From Desulfobacterales bacterium (GTDB taxonomy: Bacteria > Desulfobacterota > Desulfobacteria > Desulfobacterales > JARGFK01): a stretch of DNA of 33,050 bases. The position numbers and the translations under genes are program-made. The stretch spans positions 1 to 33,050 of the forward strand of contig JARGFK010000048.1 of NCBI GenBank assembly GCA_029211065.1, read 5' to 3'. Positions 1 to 33,050 of the stretch are shown here, piece after piece; the stretch's first letter is position 1; each line of letters starts with the position of its first letter. The notes under the pieces are model-generated. The model made no database searches and was not told the origin of the DNA. It worked only from the letters and a program-made list of their open reading frames with translations.

Positions 1-3000
1 TTGCCAAAAACCCTTTTAAAGGAAAAGCGCCCTTTTTTATACCATTTTAAAATTTACACAAAAGATTATACACTACCCGTGGCTTTGAGCGGCTCCATGC
101 AAGTATCCCCTGCCGCGACAACGACCTATACCATCACCGCCACCGGTCCGGGCGGCACGGCCACGGCAGATGTCACGGTTACTGTTAGCCCGCGGCCTTC
201 CAATGAATATAAAATTACGGCCGGCGATGCAACCGCCTATGACCACTTCGGAAATTCTGTATCCATTAGTGTTGACTACGCCATTGTGGGCGCTAAATTT
301 GATCAGCCCTATTATTCAGGCTCCGCCTATATCTTCAAACGCGATGGTACCTCCTGGATTGAACAAACCAAAATTACACCCAGCGATACGCCATCCCATT
401 ATCATCGCTTTGGGTGGTCTGTATCCGTAAGCGGTGACTACGCCATTGTGGGCGCTCCTCATGACGATCACGCTGGAGACCAGTCAGGCTCAGCCTATAT
501 CTTCAAACGCGAAGGGACAACCTGGACTGAACAAACCAAGCTTATTGGCAGCGATGTGGTAGCAACTGATTATTTCGGATATTCTGTATCTATCAGTGGT
601 GATTATGCTATTGTAGGGGCGTGGGAATTCGATGGTGGAAGATACCGATATTCAGGTTCAGCTTATATCTTTAAACGAGATGGCACCTCTTGGACAGAGC
701 AGGCCAAACTTAAACCAAGCGATGCAGGGGCCGGTGATATGTTTGGCTATTCTGTATCAATCAGTGGCAATTATGTCCTTGTGGGTGCTTATGGAAACAA
801 TGATGCCGGAAGCAATTCAGGTTCTGCTTATATCTTCAAGCGTGAGGGGGAGGCTTGGGCCCAACAGGCCAAAATAACGGCCAGCGACGCAGGATATATA
901 GACTTGTTCGGGAAGTCTGTATCAATCAGCGGTGATTACGCCATTATAGGCGCTGATTGGGATAGCGATTTTGCTGTCAAATCAGGCTCCGCCTATATCT
1001 TCAAGCGCGAAGGAACAATCTGGACTCAGCAGACCAAAATAACGGCCAGCGACGCTTCAGAATATGACTATTTCGGAAATTCCGTATCCATCAGCGACGG
1101 CATTGCTGTTGTGGGTGCTTATGGAAACGATGATGCCGGAAGCGATTCGGGTTCCGCCTATATCTTCAAGCGTAATGGTGAAGACTGGATCGAGCAGATC
1201 AAGCTAACGTCCAATGATTCAGCATATCATGATTGGTATGGAATATCTGTATCCGTTAGTGGTAACTACGTCATGATTGGTGCTGAATACAATGGCGATT
1301 CGGGTTCAGCCTATATTTATGATCTCTCAACCCCCTCCGTAACCATAACCGCCTTTCCTGAAATCATCCAGACCGGCGAGGCAGCCACCTTGTCCTGGAG
1401 TGCAGCAAACGTCGACAGCATCAGCATCGCTCCGGGCATTGGAACCGTTTCTGCCGAAGGGTCTGTAACGGTTTCACCGCAGCAGACCACCACCTATACC
1501 ATTACGGCTACCGGAGCCGGCGGCACCGTCACAGATAGCGTAACGGTTTATGTAGTTGATCCTGCCATTCCGCCGTCAGTGGGAATATCGGCCAATCCCG
1601 ACACCATTTTGGCAGGAAGCTCCTTTACCTTGTCCTGGAGCGCGAGCAATGCTACGTCCTGTGTAATCGAGTCCAACATCGGCAGCGTGGCCATAAGCGG
1701 CTCCATGCAGGTATCTCCTGCCGCCACCACCACCTATACCATCACGGCTACCGGCCCTGCCGGCACGGCCACGGGCAGCGTAACAGTAGCTGTAAATCAA
1801 CCGGTGGTTCCCACGGTGGGCATATCAGCAACGCCTGAAATCCTTCAGGTCGGAGGGACTGCAACCCTGACCTGGAATTCTACCAATGCGACTTCCTGCG
1901 CCATTGAACCTGAAATCGGAAGCATTGATCTGAACGGCTCCATACTGGTTTCGCCGGCCGCAGGCACTACCTATACCATTACGGCCCGCGGTCCGGGCGG
2001 CACGGCCAGCGCAAGTGTGGCCGTTTCCTATCCCCGGCCTACGGTCAGCATCGGCGCCAACCCGGCAACTATCCAGCCGGATGAGTCCATTACCCTGACC
2101 TGGAGTTCCACTAACGCGGTTTCCGTTGTGATCGAACCCGGCATCGGCAGCGTTGATTCAAGCGGGTCCATGGTATTGACGCCGGCCGGAACCACAACAT
2201 ACATGATCACAGCAACCGGTCCCGGGGGAACGGCATCTTCCGGTGTTACCGTATCGGTCCCCTCACAACTGCTATTAAGCATCACATCGCCTTCAAACGG
2301 CGCGACTATCATCCGGCCGGATGTCATGGTTACCGGTATGATCGCCAATGCCGCTGATAATGACGTCGGCGTCACTGTAAACGGGATTGTCGCCCTGGTA
2401 TCCGGCAATCTCTTTGCAGCCAACCACGTTCCGCTCACCGAAGGCGAAAATATCATCACCGTCACATCTACCGCCGCCGACGGTGTTACGGCAACCACCT
2501 CGATCATTGCTACTGCGGCATATGCCGGCACAAACTATATCACCATCACCGCCGACCCGGAATCCGGCGTTTCTCCCCTGCAAACAGACCTTGAAGTCAG
2601 CGGCACTTTTGTCATAACCTCACCTTCAATAACCTATACCGGCTCCGGCACGGCGACCCAGCTTTCTATCGTAGACAAAACATATAAAATGGAAATCGAC
2701 GGTCCCGGCATCTATTATTTCAACGCCGAAGCAATAGATAATCAAAACATTACCTATACAGATACCGTGGCCGTACAGGCCCTCGATCAAGCCGAACTGG
2801 ATGCCCTGTTGAGAGCTAAGTGGAAGGGCATGAAAACGGGATTAAGCAATAGCGATAAAAACGCAGCTCTGGGGTTTATCGCTAAACGTGCAAGGAACAC
2901 GTACGAGTATAATTTTAACCTGCTGAACTCATATTTGACTGAGATTTCAGCGGGTCTGCAAGATATTGAACTAGTCCAGATTCGCGATAGAATTGTGGAA

Positions 3001-3096
3001 TATAATATGCCTGGCGAGCAGGACGGGCAGACTTATTCTTTTTATATCCTCTTCGTCAAGGATTCAGATGGGGTCTGGAGGATTCGTTTCTTTTAA
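1..3096 (+). CDS. FG-GAP and Ig-like repeat surface protein, 5'-truncated
   Basis: This is a large, probably exported adhesin-like protein whose true start lies outside the window. Residues 1-26 are encoded by AT-rich DNA and look non-coding. Residues 28-66 are the second half of an Ig-like domain with no first half. Seven FG-GAP repeats of about 55 residues follow (about 71-443; each has an FG..SVSIS core, a (V/I)GA turn and a GSAYIFKR strand), which suggests a seven-bladed integrin-alpha-like propeller. Four Ig-like domains (about 446-755; each with a L(S/T)W strand, an I.SV/I.TV turn and a TTTYTITATG strand) follow, then a glucodextranase-B-like domain (757-838), a PKD-like segment, and a C-terminal domain (928-1031) ending in GVWRIRFF. 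No signal peptide is present, as expected for a truncated gene. The carboxypeptidase-regulatory-like gene starts 22 bases downstream. A cell-surface or secreted role is inferred; the ligand is unknown. Confidence 0.85.
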   Translation: MPKTLLKEKRPFLYHFKIYTKDYTLPVALSGSMQVSPAATTTYTITATGPGGTATADVTVTVSPRPSNEYKITAGDATAYDHFGNSVSISVDYAIVGAKFDQPYYSGSAYIFKRDGTSWIEQTKITPSDTPSHYHRFGWSVSVSGDYAIVGAPHDDHAGDQSGSAYIFKREGTTWTEQTKLIGSDVVATDYFGYSVSISGDYAIVGAWEFDGGRYRYSGSAYIFKRDGTSWTEQAKLKPSDAGAGDMFGYSVSISGNYVLVGAYGNNDAGSNSGSAYIFKREGEAWAQQAKITASDAGYIDLFGKSVSISGDYAIIGADWDSDFAVKSGSAYIFKREGTIWTQQTKITASDASEYDYFGNSVSISDGIAVVGAYGNDDAGSDSGSAYIFKRNGEDWIEQIKLTSNDSAYHDWYGISVSVSGNYVMIGAEYNGDSGSAYIYDLSTPSVTITAFPEIIQTGEAATLSWSAANVDSISIAPGIGTVSAEGSVTVSPQQTTTYTITATGAGGTVTDSVTVYVVDPAIPPSVGISANPDTILAGSSFTLSWSASNATSCVIESNIGSVAISGSMQVSPAATTTYTITATGPAGTATGSVTVAVNQPVVPTVGISATPEILQVGGTATLTWNSTNATSCAIEPEIGSIDLNGSILVSPAAGTTYTITARGPGGTASASVAVSYPRPTVSIGANPATIQPDESITLTWSSTNAVSVVIEPGIGSVDSSGSMVLTPAGTTTYMITATGPGGTASSGVTVSVPSQLLLSITSPSNGATIIRPDVMVTGMIANAADNDVGVTVNGIVALVSGNLFAANHVPLTEGENIITVTSTAADGVTATTSIIATAAYAGTNYITITADPESGVSPLQTDLEVSGTFVITSPSITYTGSGTATQLSIVDKTYKMEIDGPGIYYFNAEAIDNQNITYTDTVAVQALDQAELDALLRAKWKGMKTGLSNSDKNAALGFIAKRARNTYEYNFNLLNSYLTEISAGLQDIELVQIRDRIVEYNMPGEQDGQTYSFYILFVKDSDGVWRIRFF
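211..1335 (+). repeat. Seven in-gene FG-GAP repeats
   Basis: There are seven tandem coding repeats with a period of about 165 bases. Each contains the segment for GSAYIF(K), an aromatic W near the unit end, and a (K)ITASD-like start of the next unit. At the DNA level the GSAYIFKR segment is nearly identical in several copies, so unequal recombination could change the number of blades. Seven units equal one closed beta-propeller in the integrin-alpha family. Confidence 0.85.
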
Positions 3097-3118: not shown

Positions 3119-3730
3119 ATGATGAAAAAGTTTTATTTTACAATCTTATTCTACTCGCTTTTTGTCATTATCTTCAGCTTCCCATGTTTTGCAGGCTGTC
3201 TGGTGTTCAGTAAACCGGAATTCAAGGGCAAAGTTATAGATACTGAAACAAAACAGCCTATTGAAGGGGCGGTTGTGGTAGCAATATATAATAAAGATCC
3301 TATTATAAGTGGTCCAGCCGGCGGAGGCTCATCCATCATACATATTAAGGAGGTTTTAACCGATGGAAAAGGGGAGTTTAGAATCCCGGCTTATACTACA
3401 CTAATGGGACCCAATTCACGTGAAGGTATTACCGATTTCATTATTTATAAGCGGGGGTATGGTAACTATCCAGGTCTGCATACAAGCCCACCACCTCAAG
3501 TGCACCGTGAAAAGATTTTTTCACAAGAAATTGGCACTAAGGGTGAAATAAATCTGCGGTCATTTACCTATGGGGTAGTGGAATTACCAAAGCTTTTGAC
3601 GTGGGAGGAAAGAAGAAGGGCTTCCAGGAATTCTATCAGCGGCCACATTCCAGAGAGTGTATATCCTTTATTGAGTGAAGAAATAGCAAAAGAACGCAAA
3701 TGGCTGCGTACAAACATTAAACGGAGGTAA
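3119..3730 (+). CDS. Secreted protein with carboxypeptidase regulatory-like domain
   Basis: This product of about 203 residues has an N-terminal signal sequence: a KK pair, then a hydrophobic stretch to about residue 25 ending in FAGC. The Cys makes a lipoprotein possible, but F at -3 is a poor lipobox. Residues about 35-120 resemble a CarboxypepD_reg/transthyretin-like beta sandwich: KVIDTETKQPIEGA at the start, TDGKGEFRIP in the middle and a late YKRGYG strand. The C-terminal 60 residues are charged. The ATG at 3119 was chosen because TAAGGAG lies 6 bases upstream; an in-frame start at 2993 would overlap the preceding gene. The next gene begins 6 bases after the stop, so the two are probably cotranscribed. 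The exact function is unknown. Confidence 0.8.
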   Translation: MMKKFYFTILFYSLFVIIFSFPCFAGCLVFSKPEFKGKVIDTETKQPIEGAVVVAIYNKDPIISGPAGGGSSIIHIKEVLTDGKGEFRIPAYTTLMGPNSREGITDFIIYKRGYGNYPGLHTSPPPQVHREKIFSQEIGTKGEINLRSFTYGVVELPKLLTWEERRRASRNSISGHIPESVYPLLSEEIAKERKWLRTNIKRR

Positions 3731-3736
3731 AAGGCA

Positions 3737-6187
3737 GTGAATAAAATTTATAAGATCGTATGGTTGTCAATAGTCTTTTACTTATTAAATTTTAATTTAT
3801 CTTTCGCTCTCAACCCTGCTACGCATAGGACCATTAATGACTTTGTTTGCCAAAACAGTTTAAATGGATTCTCACTTGATTTATGTTTGAAGGATCAATT
3901 GGGGTTTTTATTAGGAATTGATGAAGGCATAAACCCTGAGCCCGGAATAACAAAGACAGTTTCTGTATTGATAGAAGATGGCGGGGAATTTGAAGACGAA
4001 CCTCCCTGGACCATCCCATATCTTAGATCAGTCAATCATTTTCACAACCCTTTGACTGACGGGGGTTTTTCCGGGATTTGGGGCACTGGTTTTCTTGCCG
4101 GCGAATCCTCAATTTTATGGTCCCAAAAACTCGTGGGAGAACAGGGCCCAGGCGGACATTACTCATGGCATGATGTAAGGGACTATTTTTATAAGGCCCT
4201 TACATCTTCAAATAATGCAACAAGAGATGATTATTTTGCGGACACCTTCCGAGGACTCGGACAACTGATGCATCTGGTGCAAGACTTGTCCGTTCCTGAG
4301 CATGCAAGGGATGATGGGCACTATACCCCCGCATATGAAGACTGGGTAAATAATTCTGGGAAGGTTGTCATCAATCCTGAACTTGGAGAAGTTATAATAG
4401 GTGATACTGTTACGCTTCCTCAGTTTTTTGATCCATCCGCAATCGGCATCCCCAACTCTCTTGGCTCTGTCCCCGTGGCAAATTTATTTGATACAAACCA
4501 ATATATTCAGGCAAACACGAATCCTGCGGTTACATTAAGGCCTGACATCGGTCTTTCAGAGTATACCAGCGCCAACTTTCTTAGCCCGGATACCATGTTT
4601 ACGAATGAATTCCCTTTCCCCAAGGCTGAACACACTGTCATCATACTTGACACACCGCCGGATGGAATTCCGAATCTTGACCGGCAATATCTATCAAGCA
4701 CAAACGGCCATCCCGGCGAACAAATAAATCATCTGGCCGTGGTAAGTTATACGAACTACTTTCGAACAAAATATTTCCCTAATATAAGCAGCGAAGAACT
4801 TCCCGTATATTTGGACGCAGTCTGTTATAAAGATTATGCGTCGAAACTGATTCCCCGCGCAGTAGGTTATTCAGCAGGCTTGCTGGATTATTTTTTCCGC
4901 GGCAGATTGGACATCATAAATGCCATTCCAATTAAAGCTGTTGATGGAACCATTACCAGAATTGAATTTGTCGTCAAAAATGCAACTCCGCCCATTGCCG
5001 CAGGCCAGGATGTGGAGCCGTTTGAAACCGGCAAACTGGTTCTTGCATATAAATACACGCCGGCAGGAGCGAGTGAAGCAGTTTTCGGCTTTAAAGATAA
5101 CATTTACCCCATTAGCGATTACACCGATCCTATAAACTCCGAATATGTTCATCTGAGTGTGACCTTTCCCGTCGCGATTCCTTTTGGAGCGCAGGATTTA
5201 TCTTTTATGCTCGTATTTAAAGGCAAGTTGGGCAATGAAGACTGCGCAGTCGTTGCTAAAACCATTCCAACTCACCCATATACAATCGCCTATTTCCATC
5301 AGCCGGGAGGACCGGGAAATAAAAGTGATATTTATACCATTTTCCCGGATGGTACCGGCGCGCAGAATATTACCGAAGGGTCAGCTCCCGATTCCTTTTA
5401 TTTTACACCCGCCTGGAGCCCGGATGGAAGCAAGCTTGCCTTTGAAGAGCACTTCAGTACGCCTTACAATCGCAATATCGTGGTAATCGATCTGACATCA
5501 GAGGCGCCGTATCCGTATAATATCCTGAGAACCCTGGATAACGGGGACCCATCTTTTATTCATGATACTGCGCCATCGTTTTCACCTGATGGTACAAAGA
5601 TAGTGGCTTTAAGATCCATCACCAACCTCGATATATTGGTCAGAGGTGGGTTGATTATATTTGAAGTGGCCAGCGGCAATTGGAGTTTTGTAAACGATTA
5701 TGCCTTCTGGAGTCAAAAGGATCTTAACGGTGCAAAACCGCGCTGGTCCCCCCAGGACGATAAGATCGCGTACTACCTTAAGGATGAATTTGACCCGGGG
5801 CTTGGTCAGTGGGTATTTGCGGGGGATATTTACCTGATCAATCCGGACGGCAGCGGCAATCTGAATCTTACCCACGATGCGTTTACCAATACCCAGCCGG
5901 CCTGGTCGCCGGATGGACAGAGCCTGGTTTTTGTATCGGACCGCGATGGCCAAGGGTATATGGATATCTGGATTATGGACCGAACAGGTCAAAACGAACA
6001 ACAAATATGGAATTGTAATCCCAATTGCTGGAATCCAACGTTTTCACCTGATGGCAATGAAATTATTTTCAAGCAGGGGGACGATATCTATAAAGTGAAT
6101 ATCGACTCGACCGGTCTAACCCAGGTAACGACCAGTGGCTATTTAACCGGGCAGCCGGAAGCAACACCCTTTTTGCTGTGGCCATAA
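3737..6187 (+). CDS. Secreted zinc phospholipase C-like protein fused to a TolB/PD40-type propeller
   Basis: This protein has 816 residues and a signal peptide (about 1-24, ending SFA before LNP). Residues 25-390 resemble the zinc-dependent phospholipase C / S1-P1 nuclease fold. Likely metal ligands are H30 (ATHRTIN), H101/H103 (NHFHNP), H145, the H179-x3-D183 helix, H189, D192 and H195 (VPEHARDDGH). A beta-rich linker follows. From about residue 515 there are at least four WD40-like PD40 units with the SPDG signature (PAWSPDG, PSFSPDG, PRWSPQD, PAWSPDG, PTFSPDG), as in TolB. The start is GTG, placed behind a GGAGGT that overlaps the upstream stop codon. The product is probably periplasmic or extracellular. 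The metal-site pattern supports a hydrolase, but the substrate cannot be told; phospholipid or nucleic acid are options. Its tight spacing to the upstream genes suggests a shared role. Confidence 0.8.
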   Translation: MNKIYKIVWLSIVFYLLNFNLSFALNPATHRTINDFVCQNSLNGFSLDLCLKDQLGFLLGIDEGINPEPGITKTVSVLIEDGGEFEDEPPWTIPYLRSVNHFHNPLTDGGFSGIWGTGFLAGESSILWSQKLVGEQGPGGHYSWHDVRDYFYKALTSSNNATRDDYFADTFRGLGQLMHLVQDLSVPEHARDDGHYTPAYEDWVNNSGKVVINPELGEVIIGDTVTLPQFFDPSAIGIPNSLGSVPVANLFDTNQYIQANTNPAVTLRPDIGLSEYTSANFLSPDTMFTNEFPFPKAEHTVIILDTPPDGIPNLDRQYLSSTNGHPGEQINHLAVVSYTNYFRTKYFPNISSEELPVYLDAVCYKDYASKLIPRAVGYSAGLLDYFFRGRLDIINAIPIKAVDGTITRIEFVVKNATPPIAAGQDVEPFETGKLVLAYKYTPAGASEAVFGFKDNIYPISDYTDPINSEYVHLSVTFPVAIPFGAQDLSFMLVFKGKLGNEDCAVVAKTIPTHPYTIAYFHQPGGPGNKSDIYTIFPDGTGAQNITEGSAPDSFYFTPAWSPDGSKLAFEEHFSTPYNRNIVVIDLTSEAPYPYNILRTLDNGDPSFIHDTAPSFSPDGTKIVALRSITNLDILVRGGLIIFEVASGNWSFVNDYAFWSQKDLNGAKPRWSPQDDKIAYYLKDEFDPGLGQWVFAGDIYLINPDGSGNLNLTHDAFTNTQPAWSPDGQSLVFVSDRDGQGYMDIWIMDRTGQNEQQIWNCNPNCWNPTFSPDGNEIIFKQGDDIYKVNIDSTGLTQVTTSGYLTGQPEATPFLLWP

Positions 6188-6220: not shown

Positions 6221-6718
6221 TTAGTCGATTCGAATATTGCCCGCCTGCGAAATGATAACCCGCGTGGTGCGATCATTCGTGTTGCTGATAGGCGTGGTGC
6301 CGGAAGCAAACCCACCGCCGTTGTCAGCCGGAATCCCGGTGGGGCGGAAAGCGATACAGGGCTGGCCGCTTGAGCTGTCAAAAGTTATTGCTGCCGTATT
6401 AACGCTGATGCTTTTATAATTTTCCCAATCCACCTGTGTGACAGCCTCCTCGGCACTGTCTTTCTCAAAGTCGATGTCCGCATCAACAAACATAACATAT
6501 CCACTCTCGTGGAAACAAACCGCTGTGTTGACATTTCGTTTGATGGCTGTCAGTTTTGCCTTCTGAAAATTAGAAAAGAGATCGCGGGTTGCCGATCTCA
6601 GGCGGTAATCCGGCAGCAAGCCGATGAAGTTGGGTACGGCAATAGCGGTGACCAACGCAATCATAGCGATGACAACAAGGAGTTCGACGACGGTAAACCC
6701 AAGGCTTTTATCCATCAT
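6221..6718 (-). CDS. GspH/FimT-family type II/IV pseudopilin
   Basis: This 165-residue protein has a textbook class III prepilin leader: a short basic MMDKSLG, then cleavage before F8, the invariant Glu at +5 (E12, FTVVE) and a hydrophobic helix to about residue 29. The rest is the GspH/FimT-type beta domain, ending near RTTRVIISQAGNIRID. A strong GGGAGGTGAT lies just upstream of the ATG. It stands alone, without prepilin peptidase, ATPase or secretin genes nearby. It could serve as a minor pilin of a type IV pilus or type II secretion system encoded elsewhere. It converges on the phospholipase-like gene across a 33-base gap. Confidence 0.88.
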   Translation of the reverse strand: MMDKSLGFTVVELLVVIAMIALVTAIAVPNFIGLLPDYRLRSATRDLFSNFQKAKLTAIKRNVNTAVCFHESGYVMFVDADIDFEKDSAEEAVTQVDWENYKSISVNTAAITFDSSSGQPCIAFRPTGIPADNGGGFASGTTPISNTNDRTTRVIISQAGNIRID

Positions 6719-28389: not shown

Positions 28390-30618
28390 ATCTTCGGCAC
28401 CAGTAATTTCAACCAGCAGATAGAGTCCCTAAAAGCCCCGGTTAACCTTTTTAAGGAAAATTCGATTGAAATAGAGCTGAGAAGCAATCCGGGAAGTTTC
28501 TTGATCCTTACGATTACAATAGACGTACCCCTGCCTACCGCCACGATTTCTGCAAGCCCGGATACCATTGCCGCAGGCGGGTCTGCTATCCTGACCTGGA
28601 GTTCGACCCTTGCGGATTCCTGTGTGATTACGCCCGACATCGGAACCGTTGAACCCGGTGGTTCCCTTATGGTCTCCCCCGCAGAAACAACCACTTATGT
28701 TATTACCGCTGCCAATCTCGGCGGAAGCGCTACAGCGTCGGTTACCGTAACGGTCTTGTATCCGCCAACGGTTGAGATGACAGCCACACCGGATACAATT
28801 ATTTCTGGCCAAACCACAACTCTTTTCTGGACCTCCACCCATGCCGACACTGCTTTAATTGAGCTGGGGGTAGGATCTGTTCCGGCGAGCGGCAGCGTGA
28901 CCGTATCACCCACCGAGACTGTGTCTTACACTATAACGGTAACAGGCCCCGGGGGCATAGCAACCGCGCAGGCAGTTGTTACGGTAGAAGCTGCCATTGA
29001 GCCGCAACCGGAAGGAAGCTTTGGCGCACAATATGAGGACCTGATCCCATCTGATGCCACAGTTGAATCATACGACCCCAAACGTTTTTCGTTGATCACC
29101 GGGCTGGTTCAAGCCCAGAACGGAACCCCGATACCGGATGTTTCTGTAACCATTCACAGCCATACGGCGTACGGCACCGCCTTGACCGATGCAGATGGTC
29201 GCTTCTCAATTCCGGTAGAAGGCGGCTCGACCATAACGGTCGTCTATCAAAAAGAAGGGTTAATTGATAATCATAGGAAGGTCTATGTACCCTGGAACGA
29301 TATTGCCATCGCTGAAACCATCCAGATGATATCTGCAGACCCCATTTCCACAACCGTCACATTTAATGGAAACCCCGGAACCGTAATCACCCACAAGAGT
29401 TCGGAGGTAAATGACGAATTCGGCAACCGCTCGGCCACACTTGTCTTTAGCGGTGATAATCGGGCCTATTCAGTGGATGAAAACGGTAATGTTATTCAAG
29501 AGCTGACCACAATTAAAACCAGAGCGACCGAATTTACCACGCCCGAATCCATGCCGGCGATACTCCCCCCCAACTCTGCCTATACCTATTGTGTTGAGCT
29601 TGGTGTGGATGGCGTGCAAAGAGTTCGGTTTGAAAAACCAGTCATAACATGGATCGATAATTTTCTTGGGTTTGCTGTGGGAGAGATTGTCCCGGTGGGA
29701 TATTATGACCGAGATAAAGGCGTATGGGTGCCGTCTGATAACGGTGTCGTGGTAAAGCTCCTGGATACAGACAATAACGGCATCGTTGATGCCTTGGACG
29801 CAAATGGCGATAATCAGCCCGATGATCTCAACAATAGCGGTTCTTTCACTGATGAAGTCACCGGCCTGAATAATCCGACAAGATATATGCCTGGCTCAAC
29901 TTTCTGGCGGGTGGCCGTAACCCATTTTACTCCCTGGGATGCCAACTGGCCGTATGGTCCTCCGCTGGACGCGATTTCTCCGAATCCGCCAGCGGTGCCG
30001 ATAGTAGACCAGCAAAAGACAGAACCAAAAGATTGTCAATCCCACACAAGCTCCTTTGTTGAAGAACGCAGCCGTATTTTCCACGAAGACATCCCCATAC
30101 CAGGTACCGACATAACCCTTCATTATGCCGGCAACCGGGTGAAAGGATACATACCGGTGATATCAGTCCCGGCAAGTGGAGACAGTGTGCCAGGCAGCCT
30201 GAATGGGATTATCGTAAGAATTGAGATAGCTGGTAGAACCTTACTGCAAGTATTGGCTCCTCTGCCCAACCAAAGCGCTAATTTTATCTGGGATGGATTG
30301 GATTGTTTAGGGCGGAAAGTGTTTGGCCAGATTGACGCGCGGGTGAGTATAGGCTTTCGATACAATCTGGTCTATTATAGCGCTCGCGGGGATTGGGAGA
30401 AAGCATTCGGCCAAGTAGGGGGTGGTGCAACCTGGATCACAGGCAGGCAGGAAATTATCGCCTGGAAATATAATAATATAATTGTCCCATCTCCAAATAT
30501 AAATGGGAAGGAAATTATCGCCGAAGGCTGGACGATTTCAACTCATCATAGCTTCAATCATATTGACCCATCAACGCTCCATAAAGGTGACGGTTCGATC
30601 TCAAAAAATAATGCTTAC

Positions 30619-31632
30619 ATAATCGATACTGTAGCCGGAACTGGAGTTGTGGGTGGTTCAGGCGATGGGGGCCTTGCCACACAAGCACGGTTAAATGCTC
30701 CACGTGGTGTTGCGGTTGATGCCGCTGGCAATCTCTATATCGCCGATACTAAAAATCATCGAATCCGAAAGGTGGATACTAACGGCATAATAGCCACGAT
30801 AGCCGGACGCTCTTGTGGATATTACGGCGGCTACAGCGGCGACGGGGGGCCTGCCACACAAGCATGTTTGAATAATCCCTCTCGTGTCGTTGCCGATGCT
30901 TCCGGCAATCTCTATATTGCTGATACCTACAACCATTGCATTCGAAAGGTCGATACTAGCGGCATTATCACCACTGTTGCAGGCAATGGAAATTACGGTT
31001 TCAATGGCGATGGGGGACCTGCCACACAAGCCCAGTTGTATTACCCCTCTGGCGTTGCGGTTGATGTCGCTGGTAACCTCTTCATCGCCGACTTAAGAAA
31101 TTACCGAATTCGGAAGGTGGATACCAACGGCATAATAACTACTGTGGCCGGAACTGGAATTGAAGGCTACAGCGGTGACGGAGGAGTGGCTACCCAGGCG
31201 AAACTGCATTACCTGAGCGATGTAGCTTTGGATGTATCCGGTAATATCTATATCACCACTTATAAACGAATCCGAAAGATCGATAATACCGGCATCATCA
31301 CCACTGTCGCAGGCAATGGAAACTACGGTTTTAATGGCGATGGGATACCTGCCACGCAAGCCTGGCTTACCTATACTGGTGGAATTGATATTGATACGTC
31401 AGGTAATCTCTATTTCACCGACAACTCAAATCACCGTATCCGGAAAGTAGATACAAGCGGCACCATCACCACTGTAGCCGGTAACGGAAAATTCAGTTTC
31501 TCCGTCCTTGTCGGCGACGGGGGACCTGCCACTCAGGCTGAAGTTAGAGCACCGCAAGATGTTGCTGTTGATGCCTCTGGCGATTTCTATCTCCCCGAAT
31601 TGTACCTCAATCGTATCCGGAAAGTGGACATA
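30619..31632 (+). repeat. Six NHL repeats inside the RHS gene
   Basis: There are six tandem units of about 56 residues (168 bases). Each has a TTVAGNG start, GDGG.ATQA, a GVAVDA.GNLYIAD strand pair and a NHRIRKVDT end. Unit 4 is two residues shorter in its last strand, and unit 6 has an insertion after NGKFSF. Six units match a six-bladed NHL propeller. Confidence 0.88.
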
Positions 31633-32265
31633 CCCATTGCCTTTAATGTTTTAATGACTGCCGGGGAGATTGCATTTGTCGAGGAAAACGACTTGATGCA
31701 TATTATGTTAAATGCTGGACGACACCTGCGCACCGTTGACCTTGATACCGGTGTTACCCTTTATGAGTTTGGCTATGACCAGAATAATAAGTTGGTCTCA
31801 ATCACTAATCAATTTGGAGAACAAATCACAATAAACAGAGATGCAAACGGTATCCCCTATTCCATTACATCCCCGGACGGAATTACAACCAATCTCACCG
31901 TAAATGCTGATAATCATCTCACCCGGATCACTTACCCGAACGGCAGTTACTACAACTTTGAATACACTCCTGCTGGCCTGCTGACAGCAAAGGTTGAGCC
32001 TGAAGGCAATCGCTTTGAGCATGTATTTGACTCAACAGGAAGATTGACAGATGCAACCGACGAAGAGGGCGGCCAATGGCATTATTCCAGGAGCAGTCTT
32101 GAAACCGCCAAGACTCTTAACGAAGTGTCAAGCGCTGAAGGCAATCTTTCTTCTTACTTGGATCATACATACTCTACGGGTAAATACACCTCAACCATCA
32201 CCGATCCTACTGGAGCCCAGACGCTGTTTTCCCAGTCGGCTGACGGGCTCACCGCAAACAAGTCT

Positions 32266-32277
32266 CTTCCTGCGGTA
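32266..32277 (+). other. Frameshift site (one base missing) in the RHS gene
   Basis: The main frame reads SLPAV then TGA. Adding one base in 32266-32271 gives SLPCGMNLEFKYG and joins the downstream YD-repeat frame, which is open to the window end. The site is the short run CTTCCTGCGG. Confidence 0.85.
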
Positions 32278-33050
32278 TGAATCTTGAATTTAAATATGGC
32301 GTCGATTCCGAATATAAGTTCAAATATGTTAATAAAGTAACCGAAAGCACGCCTGCTAATTTGGCAAAAATAACGCTAAAGGATAAGACTTACCAGGATA
32401 CAGACACCGATGAAATTCCTGATCTTATAACTGATACCGTGACAGTCAATGGTAACGCTACAACCCTTGTGCATAACACCCTCCAGGCGCAAAAGGTTAT
32501 CACCTCCCCTGAGGGAAGGACCGTAACTACCGTTTATGATCCTGCCAATCTGTTGACCGAAAGTATGAGCGTACCCGGTCTTTTTGACACGTCTTATGGA
32601 TATGACGCCAGAGGAAGGTTAACCTTAATTACCACAAATACCCGGCAAACCGCTTTTACTTATAACTCAGAAGGGTTCCTGGGAACCGTGACGGACCCTG
32701 AAAACCACACAACCACCTATAGTTATGATCCGGTTGGTCGTGTAATCGGCATCAGTCGCCCGGATGGGGGTGCCGTGGGGTTTTCCTACGACGGCAACGG
32801 CAACATGACCGTACTGACCAATCCGTTTACGATTGACCACCGGTTCGGCTTTAACAAGGTCAACCTGAACAGCTCCTACCAGACTCCTTTAAGCGGCAGC
32901 TATAGTTATGTTTACGATAAAGACCGTCGCCTGATCCGGACCAACTTTCCATCCGGCAATCATATTTTTAATATACTGGGTATGCAGTTAACTCAACCGC
33001 CCACTATATGTAGAGGGTTACCTCCAATAATCATTTGGCGCGACACAGGC
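32277..33050 (+). CDS. RHS YD-repeat continuation, out of frame and cut by the window end
   Basis: There are 258 sense codons without a stop, in the frame one base behind the upstream fragment. YD-type units are plain: YGYDARGRLTLIT, FTYNSEGFLGTVTDPENHT, YSYDPVGRVIGISRPDGG, FSYDGNGNMTVLTNP and YVYDKDRRLIRTNFPSG. The product would be the shell-forming part of an RHS protein. From about 32975 the reading (GMQLTQPPTICRG) no longer resembles YD repeats. The ATG at 32277 has no ribosome site and is probably only a codon within the ancestral gene. Confidence 0.85.
   Translation, partial: MNLEFKYGVDSEYKFKYVNKVTESTPANLAKITLKDKTYQDTDTDEIPDLITDTVTVNGNATTLVHNTLQAQKVITSPEGRTVTTVYDPANLLTESMSVPGLFDTSYGYDARGRLTLITTNTRQTAFTYNSEGFLGTVTDPENHTTTYSYDPVGRVIGISRPDGGAVGFSYDGNGNMTVLTNPFTIDHRFGFNKVNLNSSYQTPLSGSYSYVYDKDRRLIRTNFPSGNHIFNILGMQLTQPPTICRGLPPIIIWRDTG

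What the first reader, a model, noticed from the sequence alone, without database searches (positions are those of the whole stretch)
3119..6187. Phospholipase/nuclease-like domain fused to a TolB-type propeller, with a CPD-like partner
A signal peptide, a zinc phospholipase C-like domain with a near-complete His/Asp ligand set, and PD40 repeats in one 816-residue protein is an unusual combination. It sits 6 bases behind a secreted CPD-like protein and follows an FG-GAP/Ig protein, so the three may form a secreted or surface complex. This is the best candidate here for an uncharacterised system.
Basis: partly seen in the sequence, partly recalled or inferred. Interest (0 to 1): 0.6.

Follow-up and report, generated by a model that had tools for sequence, protein, structure and literature searches.

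The report
Exported zinc hydrolase three-gene module
The window holds one copy of a widespread but apparently undescribed bacterial three-gene unit that exports an enzyme shaped like zinc-dependent phospholipase C, together with a small dedicated partner protein and a large adhesin-like protein; what it attacks or digests is still unknown.

Summary
Window 3737-6187 encodes an 816-aa, apparently exported protein (C): a phospholipase C/P1-nuclease-type zinc domain (25-392), a beta-sandwich (about 391-510) and a PD40 propeller (about 556-800), six bases behind a CPD-like gene (B) and an adhesin-like gene (A). The zinc site is complete: eight ligand columns are kept across 72 domains (the weakest, E201, in 70), and the predicted mature N-terminus lies where solved PLC and S1/P1 enzymes have theirs. 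The domain matches PLCs at Z 14.0-17.1, S1/P1 nucleases at 11.2-12.8, the next fold at 3.4; Pfam and NCBIfam do not recognise it. Of 58 related loci with enough upstream sequence, 51 are A-B-C, 6 are A-x-C with a membrane-protein gene in the middle, 1 shows neither. B covaries with C's catalytic domain, hardly with A. The propeller is rare (3 of 63 distal modules). Most likely: an exported phosphodiesterase, probably lipid-directed, with B as chaperone/inhibitor and A as targeting partner. Substrate, activity and role are not shown. New variant of a known kind; no description found in the literature searched.

The parts
1..3096 (+). Gene A (5' end cut by contig): adhesin-like protein with FG-GAP_2 repeats, Ig-like repeats and a Glucodextran_B-like domain
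2743..3093 (+). C-terminal signature domain of A (about 118 aa; NTF2-like at best, by weak single-member hits), constant part of A, only copy found in the genome
3119..3730 (+). Gene B: apparently exported CarboxypepD_reg-like (transthyretin-like) protein, 203 aa, only copy found in the genome
3737..6187 (+). Gene C: apparently exported zinc hydrolase, 816 aa, GTG start
3737..3808 (+). Inferred signal peptide of C (residues 1-24; inferred cleavage A24|L25)
   Evidence: sequence
3809..4912 (+). PLC/P1-type zinc domain of C (residues 25-392); ligand columns H30, D87, H101, H179, D183, H189, H195, E201
4907..5266 (+). Beta-sandwich directly after the zinc domain (about residues 391-510), shared by most of the family
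5402..6136 (+). PD40/TolB-type propeller (about residues 556-800), the exchangeable distal module of this copy

Best explanation
The window carries one copy of a conserved A-B-C unit. C is exported by Sec; removal of its signal peptide frees an N-terminal residue (L25) that, with eight side chains, would hold three zinc ions in a phospholipase C/P1-nuclease-type active site. The enzyme should therefore hydrolyse phosphodiesters outside the cytoplasm, more likely in phospholipids than in nucleic acids. B, an exported transthyretin-like protein, is the dedicated partner of the catalytic domain, most likely a folding chaperone or inhibitor that keeps the enzyme harmless to the producing cell. A, a large adhesin-like protein with variable binding arrays and a constant C-terminal part, and the exchangeable distal module of C (here a TolB-like propeller) would direct the enzyme to a surface or substrate. 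Supported by sequence and predicted fold: gene order, apparent export signals, ligand set, fold, exchangeable ends, B-C covariation. Inferred: cleavage, zinc binding, activity, lipid preference, roles of A, B and the propeller.
For: Ligands: over 72 domains (window plus 71 of the 102 matched stretches; the 31 partial, frameshifted or split ones were left out) H30 is 71/71 with one gap, D87, H101, H179, D183, H189, H195 72/72, E201 70/72 (2 H). Spacing H179-D183 (4) and D183-H189 (6) is fixed in 72/72, as in His141-Asp145-His151 of the bacterial nuclease SmNuc1, whose ligands Trp27 (N-terminal) and His32 match L25 and H30 in spacing (PMC11705217, passages). A small residue followed by a large hydrophobic one lies at H30-5 (54) or H30-6 (17) in 71 of 71. 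Domain model pLDDT 87.2, pTM 0.87; VIA-align: the first 29 entries listed are PLCs (Z 14.0-17.1) and S1/P1 nucleases (11.2-12.8), next row 3.4; all 29 alignments start at model residue 25, against chain residue 1 of PLC and P1, 27 of SmNuc1, 21 of S1. hhalign with 8 S1-P1-like relatives: probability 89.7, E 1.9e-6. Conservation: of 58 loci with at least 2.5 kb upstream, 51 A-B-C (50 by script, L086 corrected by hand), 6 A-x-C, 1 with neither found. In 192 genomes of the class A occurs in 17, C in 19, both in 16 (Fisher p 1.9e-19, which ignores relatedness; the sample includes genomes that gave seed sequences). Own genome: one hit each for A domain, B and C, all here. Distance partial correlations over 47 trios: B-C 0.61, A-C 0.40, A-B 0.07, though in 49 of 56 trios A and B lie within 160 bases of each other. 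Apparent signal peptides by crude hydropathy: C 55/56, B 54/56, A 35/43. Lipid over nucleic acid: higher Z to PLC; Glu rather than Asp at the eighth ligand (Asp179 in SmNuc1; Glu in PLC recalled); a beta-sandwich behind the catalytic domain as in two-domain PLCs (recalled).
Against: No Pfam or NCBIfam family is reached by the window domain; PF00882 matches 6 of 67 members only weakly (best 6.7e-4). Foldseek itself gave no E below 0.03. Profile comparison fits S1-P1-like proteins better than local PF00882-type proteins (89.7 against 1.8), and H30 lies at mature position 6 as spaced in SmNuc1, both of which speak for the nuclease side. Model coordinates could not be measured. No recurring secretion gene or regulator was found beside the unit. 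B is replaced in 6 testable loci, occurs without C in 5 of 21 genomes, and C occurs without A in 3 of 19 (two of them at contig ends) and A without C in 1 of 17. Covariation of linked genes is only indirect evidence of contact.
Confidence: 0.5

Rival explanations
1. Interbacterial antagonism: C is a membrane- or nucleic-acid-degrading toxin delivered to neighbours, A is the surface delivery or recognition scaffold and B is the cognate immunity protein.
For: B sits directly before C and covaries with its catalytic domain but not with A or the beta-sandwich; its median identity (0.28, whole protein) is below those of the A domain (0.33) and C domain (0.375); it is multiplied without C in L091 (five B, one C) and together with truncated C copies in L046, L054, L065, L079, L101; in 6 testable loci an unrelated multi-pass membrane protein takes its place, as one would expect of exchangeable immunity genes. 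Het-C toxins are predicted to share the superfamily (PMC3482391, section 27 read).
Against: The catalytic part is N-terminal and constant and the variable part distal, the reverse of polymorphic toxins; no recurring delivery gene beside the unit; truncated C copies look like decaying duplicates; immunity genes usually follow the toxin gene (recalled).
Confidence: 0.25
2. Nutrient scavenging: C is an exported S1/P1-type nuclease that releases nucleotides or phosphate from dead biomass; A and the distal modules bind particles or biofilm.
For: hhalign fit to S1-P1-like proteins, N-terminal geometry as in SmNuc1, many groundwater and sediment-type record titles, binding-type arrays in A.
Against: The structure is nearer to PLC; the eighth ligand is Glu; no recurring phosphate-uptake neighbour; a dedicated covarying B is not needed for secreted S1/P1 nucleases (recalled).
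Confidence: 0.2
3. Binding protein that has kept the metal site for structure only: A-B-C as a surface adhesion complex without catalysis.
For: Large adhesin-like A, propeller in C.
Against: The eight ligand columns and the signal-peptide boundary are kept across 72 domains at a median identity of about 0.38 (56 trios), more than a scaffold would need.
Confidence: 0.05

Closest known systems
Zinc-dependent phospholipase C (Bacillus cereus PLC, 1ah7; clostridial alpha-toxin fold)
   Same: All-alpha fold over residues 25-390 (Z 16.0 to 1ah7, rmsd 3.1, 208 aligned), model residue 25 at chain residue 1; Glu as eighth ligand and a beta-sandwich after the domain (the PLC side of these two is recalled)
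   Different: 12-16% identity, longer domain, His at mature position 6 instead of 14 (14 recalled), below the Pfam cut-off, conserved A/B neighbours, distal modules
S1/P1 nucleases (SmNuc1 8qjl, S1 5fb9, P1 1ak0)
   Same: Same fold (Z 12.8, 12.6, 12.0), N-terminal residue followed by His at +5 and HxxxDxxxxxH spacing as in SmNuc1; profile match to S1-P1-like relatives
   Different: Glu for Asp at the last ligand, lower Z than to PLC, PF02265 listed for none of 67 members at E<=0.01
Het-C toxin domain
   Same: Predicted in print to share the PLC/S1-P1 fold and metal site (PMC3482391)
   Different: Not compared by profile here; C has no polymorphic-toxin architecture
TolB / PD40 propellers
   Same: The distal module of this copy is a PD40 propeller
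   Different: 99.7 bits against the TolB cut-off of 343.15; no Tol-Pal gene seen beside it; another propeller frame (458 aa) lies at G000:C26
Carboxypeptidase regulatory-like (transthyretin-like) domains
   Same: B contains one (37 of 47 members at E<=0.01)
   Different: Scores of the window's B are below the Pfam cut-off; B has a family-specific C-terminal half and is tied to C

Membership tests
PLC/P1 nuclease superfamily | Common all-alpha fold | tested here: met
   29 superfamily entries at Z 11.2-17.1, next unrelated 3.4; model pLDDT 87.2; Foldseek E only 0.03 at best
PLC/P1 nuclease superfamily | Eight side-chain zinc ligands in order, with HxxxDxxxxxH | tested here: met
   correspondence to the SmNuc1 ligands from passages; zinc itself not tested
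PLC/P1 nuclease superfamily | Mature N-terminal residue as ligand, freed by signal peptidase | tested here: met
   as a sequence pattern in 71 of 71 and in structural register, model residue 25 at the first chain residue; cleavage itself not tested
PLC/P1 nuclease superfamily | Ligand atoms cluster in space | not testable with these tools
PLC/P1 nuclease superfamily | Zinc-dependent phosphodiesterase activity | not testable with these tools
   needs the purified protein
Pfam PF00882 Zn_dep_PLPC | Score above curated cut-off | tested here: not met
   window protein no hit; 6 of 67 members listed at E<=0.01, best 6.7e-4
Pfam PF02265 S1-P1_nuclease | Score above curated cut-off | tested here: not met
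   0 of 67 members listed at E<=0.01 and no own-genome match; hhalign 89.7 to S1-P1-like relatives shows relation, not membership
TolB | TIGR02800 equivalog cut-off | tested here: not met
   99.7 of 343.15 bits
Polymorphic toxin system | Constant trafficking part with variable C-terminal toxin domain | tested here: not met
   catalytic domain N-terminal and constant, distal part variable
Polymorphic toxin system | Cognate immunity gene next to the toxin gene | tested here: inconclusive
   B adjacent and covarying, its function unknown
Het-C | Het-C profile match | not tested
   no Het-C alignment was built; no Het-C family is among those listed

The most novel reading that the evidence does not exclude
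A cross-phylum contact-dependent lytic system: an adhesin-like scaffold (A) presents an N-terminally activated phospholipase C (C) to neighbouring cells, with exchangeable distal targeting modules on C and exchangeable envelope protectors (transthyretin-like B or unrelated membrane proteins) in the middle position, i.e. a polymorphic toxin system turned round, because the zinc site needs a free N-terminus.
Probability: 0.15. Interest if true: 0.85.

Novelty: new variant of a known kind. Interest (0 to 1): 0.58.

Why it matters
It would add an unrecognised family to the trinuclear zinc phosphodiesterases, with a fixed gene partnership found in several phyla known mostly from metagenomes. Because a dedicated covarying partner (B) and exchangeable outer parts come with it, the substrate, the role of B and a possible lytic function can be tested directly with a handful of purified proteins.

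Tried and rejected
Considered and rejected: that C is a TolB protein (score far below cut-off) or that the propeller fusion defines the system (3 of 63). That the A signature domain is a general RHS-associated part: it has one match in the genome, here, and none in the Ig-array gene at 28501-32280. That the unit is phage- or plasmid-borne: no relatives in viral contigs, plasmids or phages, at the sensitivity of those searches. That further genes belong to the unit: no cluster of flanking frames (80 aa or more) occurs in more than 5 of 80 loci.

Led nowhere: PDB sequence search with the domain profile (0 hits); Foldseek and VIA with the full-length model were filled by propellers; profile comparison with local PF00882-type proteins (probability 1.8), which also fail against the S1-P1-like set (0.15), so this negative says little; the NTF2-like nature of the A domain rests on single-member hits among 55 (TcaA_5th 3.3e-4). 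Similarity of the beta-sandwich to PLAT/C2 domains was not tested, the Foldseek cap being used.

Limits: the 80 loci are the best 80 of 191. The scan picked C by its own motifs, so the finding of A and B is independent of the selection but the conservation of C is not wholly. The 31 stretches left out of the ligand count include four intact but divergent C proteins whose match the model split in two (L104, L109, L113, L121). In one search L086 was scored A-C by the script because its C frame starts early; one search shows B there and I count it as A-B-C. L114, where neither A nor B was found, has C split over two frames. In 7 of 56 trios the distance from A to the last B exceeds 600 bases, in some because further B-C copies lie between. 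The Pfam scan of A took 37 of the relatives plus the window, chosen by length and by not touching a contig end. Clusters are single-linkage.

Literature: search listings only for (0 papers; 1; 61, 10 listed; 29, 12 listed; 0; 4; 333, 8 listed); passages of PMC5201275 and PMC11705217; passages and section 27 of PMC3482391. None of the titles and abstract starts seen names this trio or the C family; the library holds open-licence papers only.
Full report
What is there. The window is a complete contig (G000:C48). Its first 6.2 kb hold three genes on the plus strand: A (1-3096, 5' end missing), B (3119-3730) and C (3737-6187). B starts 22 bases after A's stop; C starts with GTG six bases after B's stop, with a GGAGG nine bases before it. 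A has FG-GAP_2 repeats (2.4e-119), Ig-like repeats and a Glucodextran_B-like domain; B a weak carboxypeptidase-regulatory-like domain; C three PD40 stretches near its end.

The catalytic domain. The window's C has no Pfam match before the propeller. An alignment of seven domain relatives found 191 relatives in one-genome-per-species contigs; the best 80 were kept. By record title these are 34 Nitrospirota-type, 37 Deltaproteobacteria/Desulfobacterota/Geobacter-type, 3 Rokubacteria, 2 anammox planctomycetes, 1 Zixibacteria, 1 Aminicenantes and 2 others (my count of the titles). Over 72 domains (window plus 71 of 102 matched stretches) the columns H30 (71/71, one gap), D87, H101, H179, D183, H189, H195 (72/72 each) and E201 (70/72) are kept. 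They come in the order and, for H179-D183-H189, with the exact spacing of the zinc ligands published for SmNuc1: Trp27, His32, Asp71, His88, His141, Asp145, His151, His175, Asp179 (PMC11705217, passages). In S1 and SmNuc1 the first ligand is the main chain of the N-terminal Trp (passages). In 71 of 71 relatives with H30 a small residue followed by a large hydrophobic one stands so that a cut would leave H30 at mature position 6 (54) or 7 (17): the signal-peptidase site seems placed so that the new N-terminus can reach the metal site.

Fold. The domain alone (392 aa, 38 sequences) was predicted at pLDDT 87.2, pTM 0.87. Foldseek ranks PLC structures first but weakly (best E 0.03). The second aligner, which only re-aligns Foldseek's candidates (152 chains), lists PLCs at Z 14.0-17.1 and S1/P1 nucleases at 11.2-12.8, then falls to 3.4; each of these 29 rows begins at model residue 25. 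The tool's note warns about helical proteins below about 13; the PLC rows lie above that, the nuclease rows do not, and the gap to unrelated folds is large. Profile-profile comparison gives 89.7 probability (E 1.9e-6 for the pair) against eight S1-P1-like proteins of relatives, aligning the signal-peptide end plus TH, the NH motif and HxxxDxSxPxH; comparisons with the A domain (0.1), B (18.0) and PF00882-type proteins (1.8) are low. Membership in the superfamily is thus well supported; membership in either Pfam family is not met.

The unit. Models of the A C-terminal domain, B and the C domain were run on all frames of the 80 loci. Of 58 loci with at least 2.5 kb upstream of C, 51 have A-B-C (50 by script plus L086), 6 have A and C with another small gene between (L102, L113, L119, L121 of Nitrospirota-type records, L111 Zixibacteria, L118 Aminicenantes) and in one (L114) neither A nor B was found. 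The other 22 loci have less upstream sequence and were not counted. In the 6 exceptions the middle gene encodes a hydrophobic protein with 2-6 predicted membrane segments and no B match. In 192 genomes of the window's class the C domain occurs in 19, the A domain in 17, both in 16, B in 21; C without A in G071, G090 (contig ends) and G161, A without C in G137, B without C in five genomes. In the window's own genome each has one match, here. No cluster of flanking frames is shared by more than 5 of 80 loci.

Architecture. In 69 C proteins (window included) the stretch after the catalytic domain falls into one single-linkage group of 67 (beta-sandwich in the window's model) and one of 2. Beyond it, 63 distal parts fall into five multi-member groups (33, 9, 4, 4, 3) and ten singletons; the window belongs to the propeller group of 3 (window, L064, L100). 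A shows the mirror image: a constant C-terminal part (Glucodextran_B in 35 of 38 scanned, then the signature domain) and a variable front (fn3 in 14, PKD in 10, several propeller families; FG-GAP_2 in the window copy). So A and C both carry exchangeable outer parts.

B and C. Pairwise distances over 47 trios give partial correlations B-C 0.61, A-C 0.40, A-B 0.07, B to beta-sandwich 0.03 (jackknife ranges 0.59-0.63, 0.38-0.41, 0.04-0.11, 0.01-0.04); with three parts and 56 trios the raw values are B-C 0.73, A-C 0.53, A-B 0.45, none reached in 1000 permutations. As A and B are mostly as close neighbours as B and C, linkage alone hardly explains the difference; but the short, noisy alignments of A and of the sandwich may lower their values. 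B-C pairs are also duplicated together, often with C truncated.

Mechanism. Apparent export, the place of the cleavage site and a complete ligand set for three zincs point to an extracytoplasmic phosphodiesterase. Lipid is favoured over nucleic acid by the structural ranking, the Glu ligand and the following sandwich; the S1-P1 profile match and the spacing of H30 from the N-terminus point the other way. I put lipid at about 0.55 and nucleic acid at about 0.3 (judgement). B is most simply a chaperone or inhibitor of the catalytic domain; its replacement by membrane proteins and its multiplication in L091 would also suit immunity. Nothing here shows activity, complex formation or passage through the outer membrane.

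Novelty. The C domain and its sandwich, B and the propeller have known or recognisable folds, but no family library names the C domain or, with confidence, the A domain, and none of the literature listings seen mentions the trio. The nearest idea in print that I saw is that Het-C toxins share this fold (PMC3482391, section 27).

Noticed in passing
window 28501-33050 (+): A 1259-aa Ig-array gene followed by an overlapping frame with YD/RHS-like repeats running off the contig; its Ig repeats resemble those of A by eye, but it lacks the A signature domain. RHS nature judged by eye only.
   Followed up: partly
L046, L054, L065, L079, L101; also G031:C625 and G199:C5: Tandem B-C units in which the earlier C copies are truncated, in several cases near the HxxxDxxxxxH motif.
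   Followed up: partly
L091 5097-8923: Five successive B genes before one C.
   Followed up: no
L102, L104, L113, L119, L121 and L111, L118 (between A and C): Middle gene B replaced by small multi-pass membrane proteins, by eye of two kinds: about 100-130 aa in the Nitrospirota-type records, about 200 aa in Zixibacteria and Aminicenantes.
   Followed up: partly
L099 6946-8184: A separate gene that looks like a TolB-type propeller by eye lies between A and B, suggesting the propeller can be free-standing.
   Followed up: no
G000:C69:23221-23508: A PF00882 match just over the cut-off (27.4 against 26.8 bits) inside an open frame of 8217 aa in the window's own genome.
   Followed up: no
window 6221-6718 (-): Pseudopilin-like gene (by eye) convergent with C; no sign that it belongs to the unit.
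   Followed up: no
L124-L132: A compact family of mostly 224-261-aa S1-P1-like proteins with apparent signal peptides in relatives, one of nine over the Pfam cut-off.
   Followed up: partly
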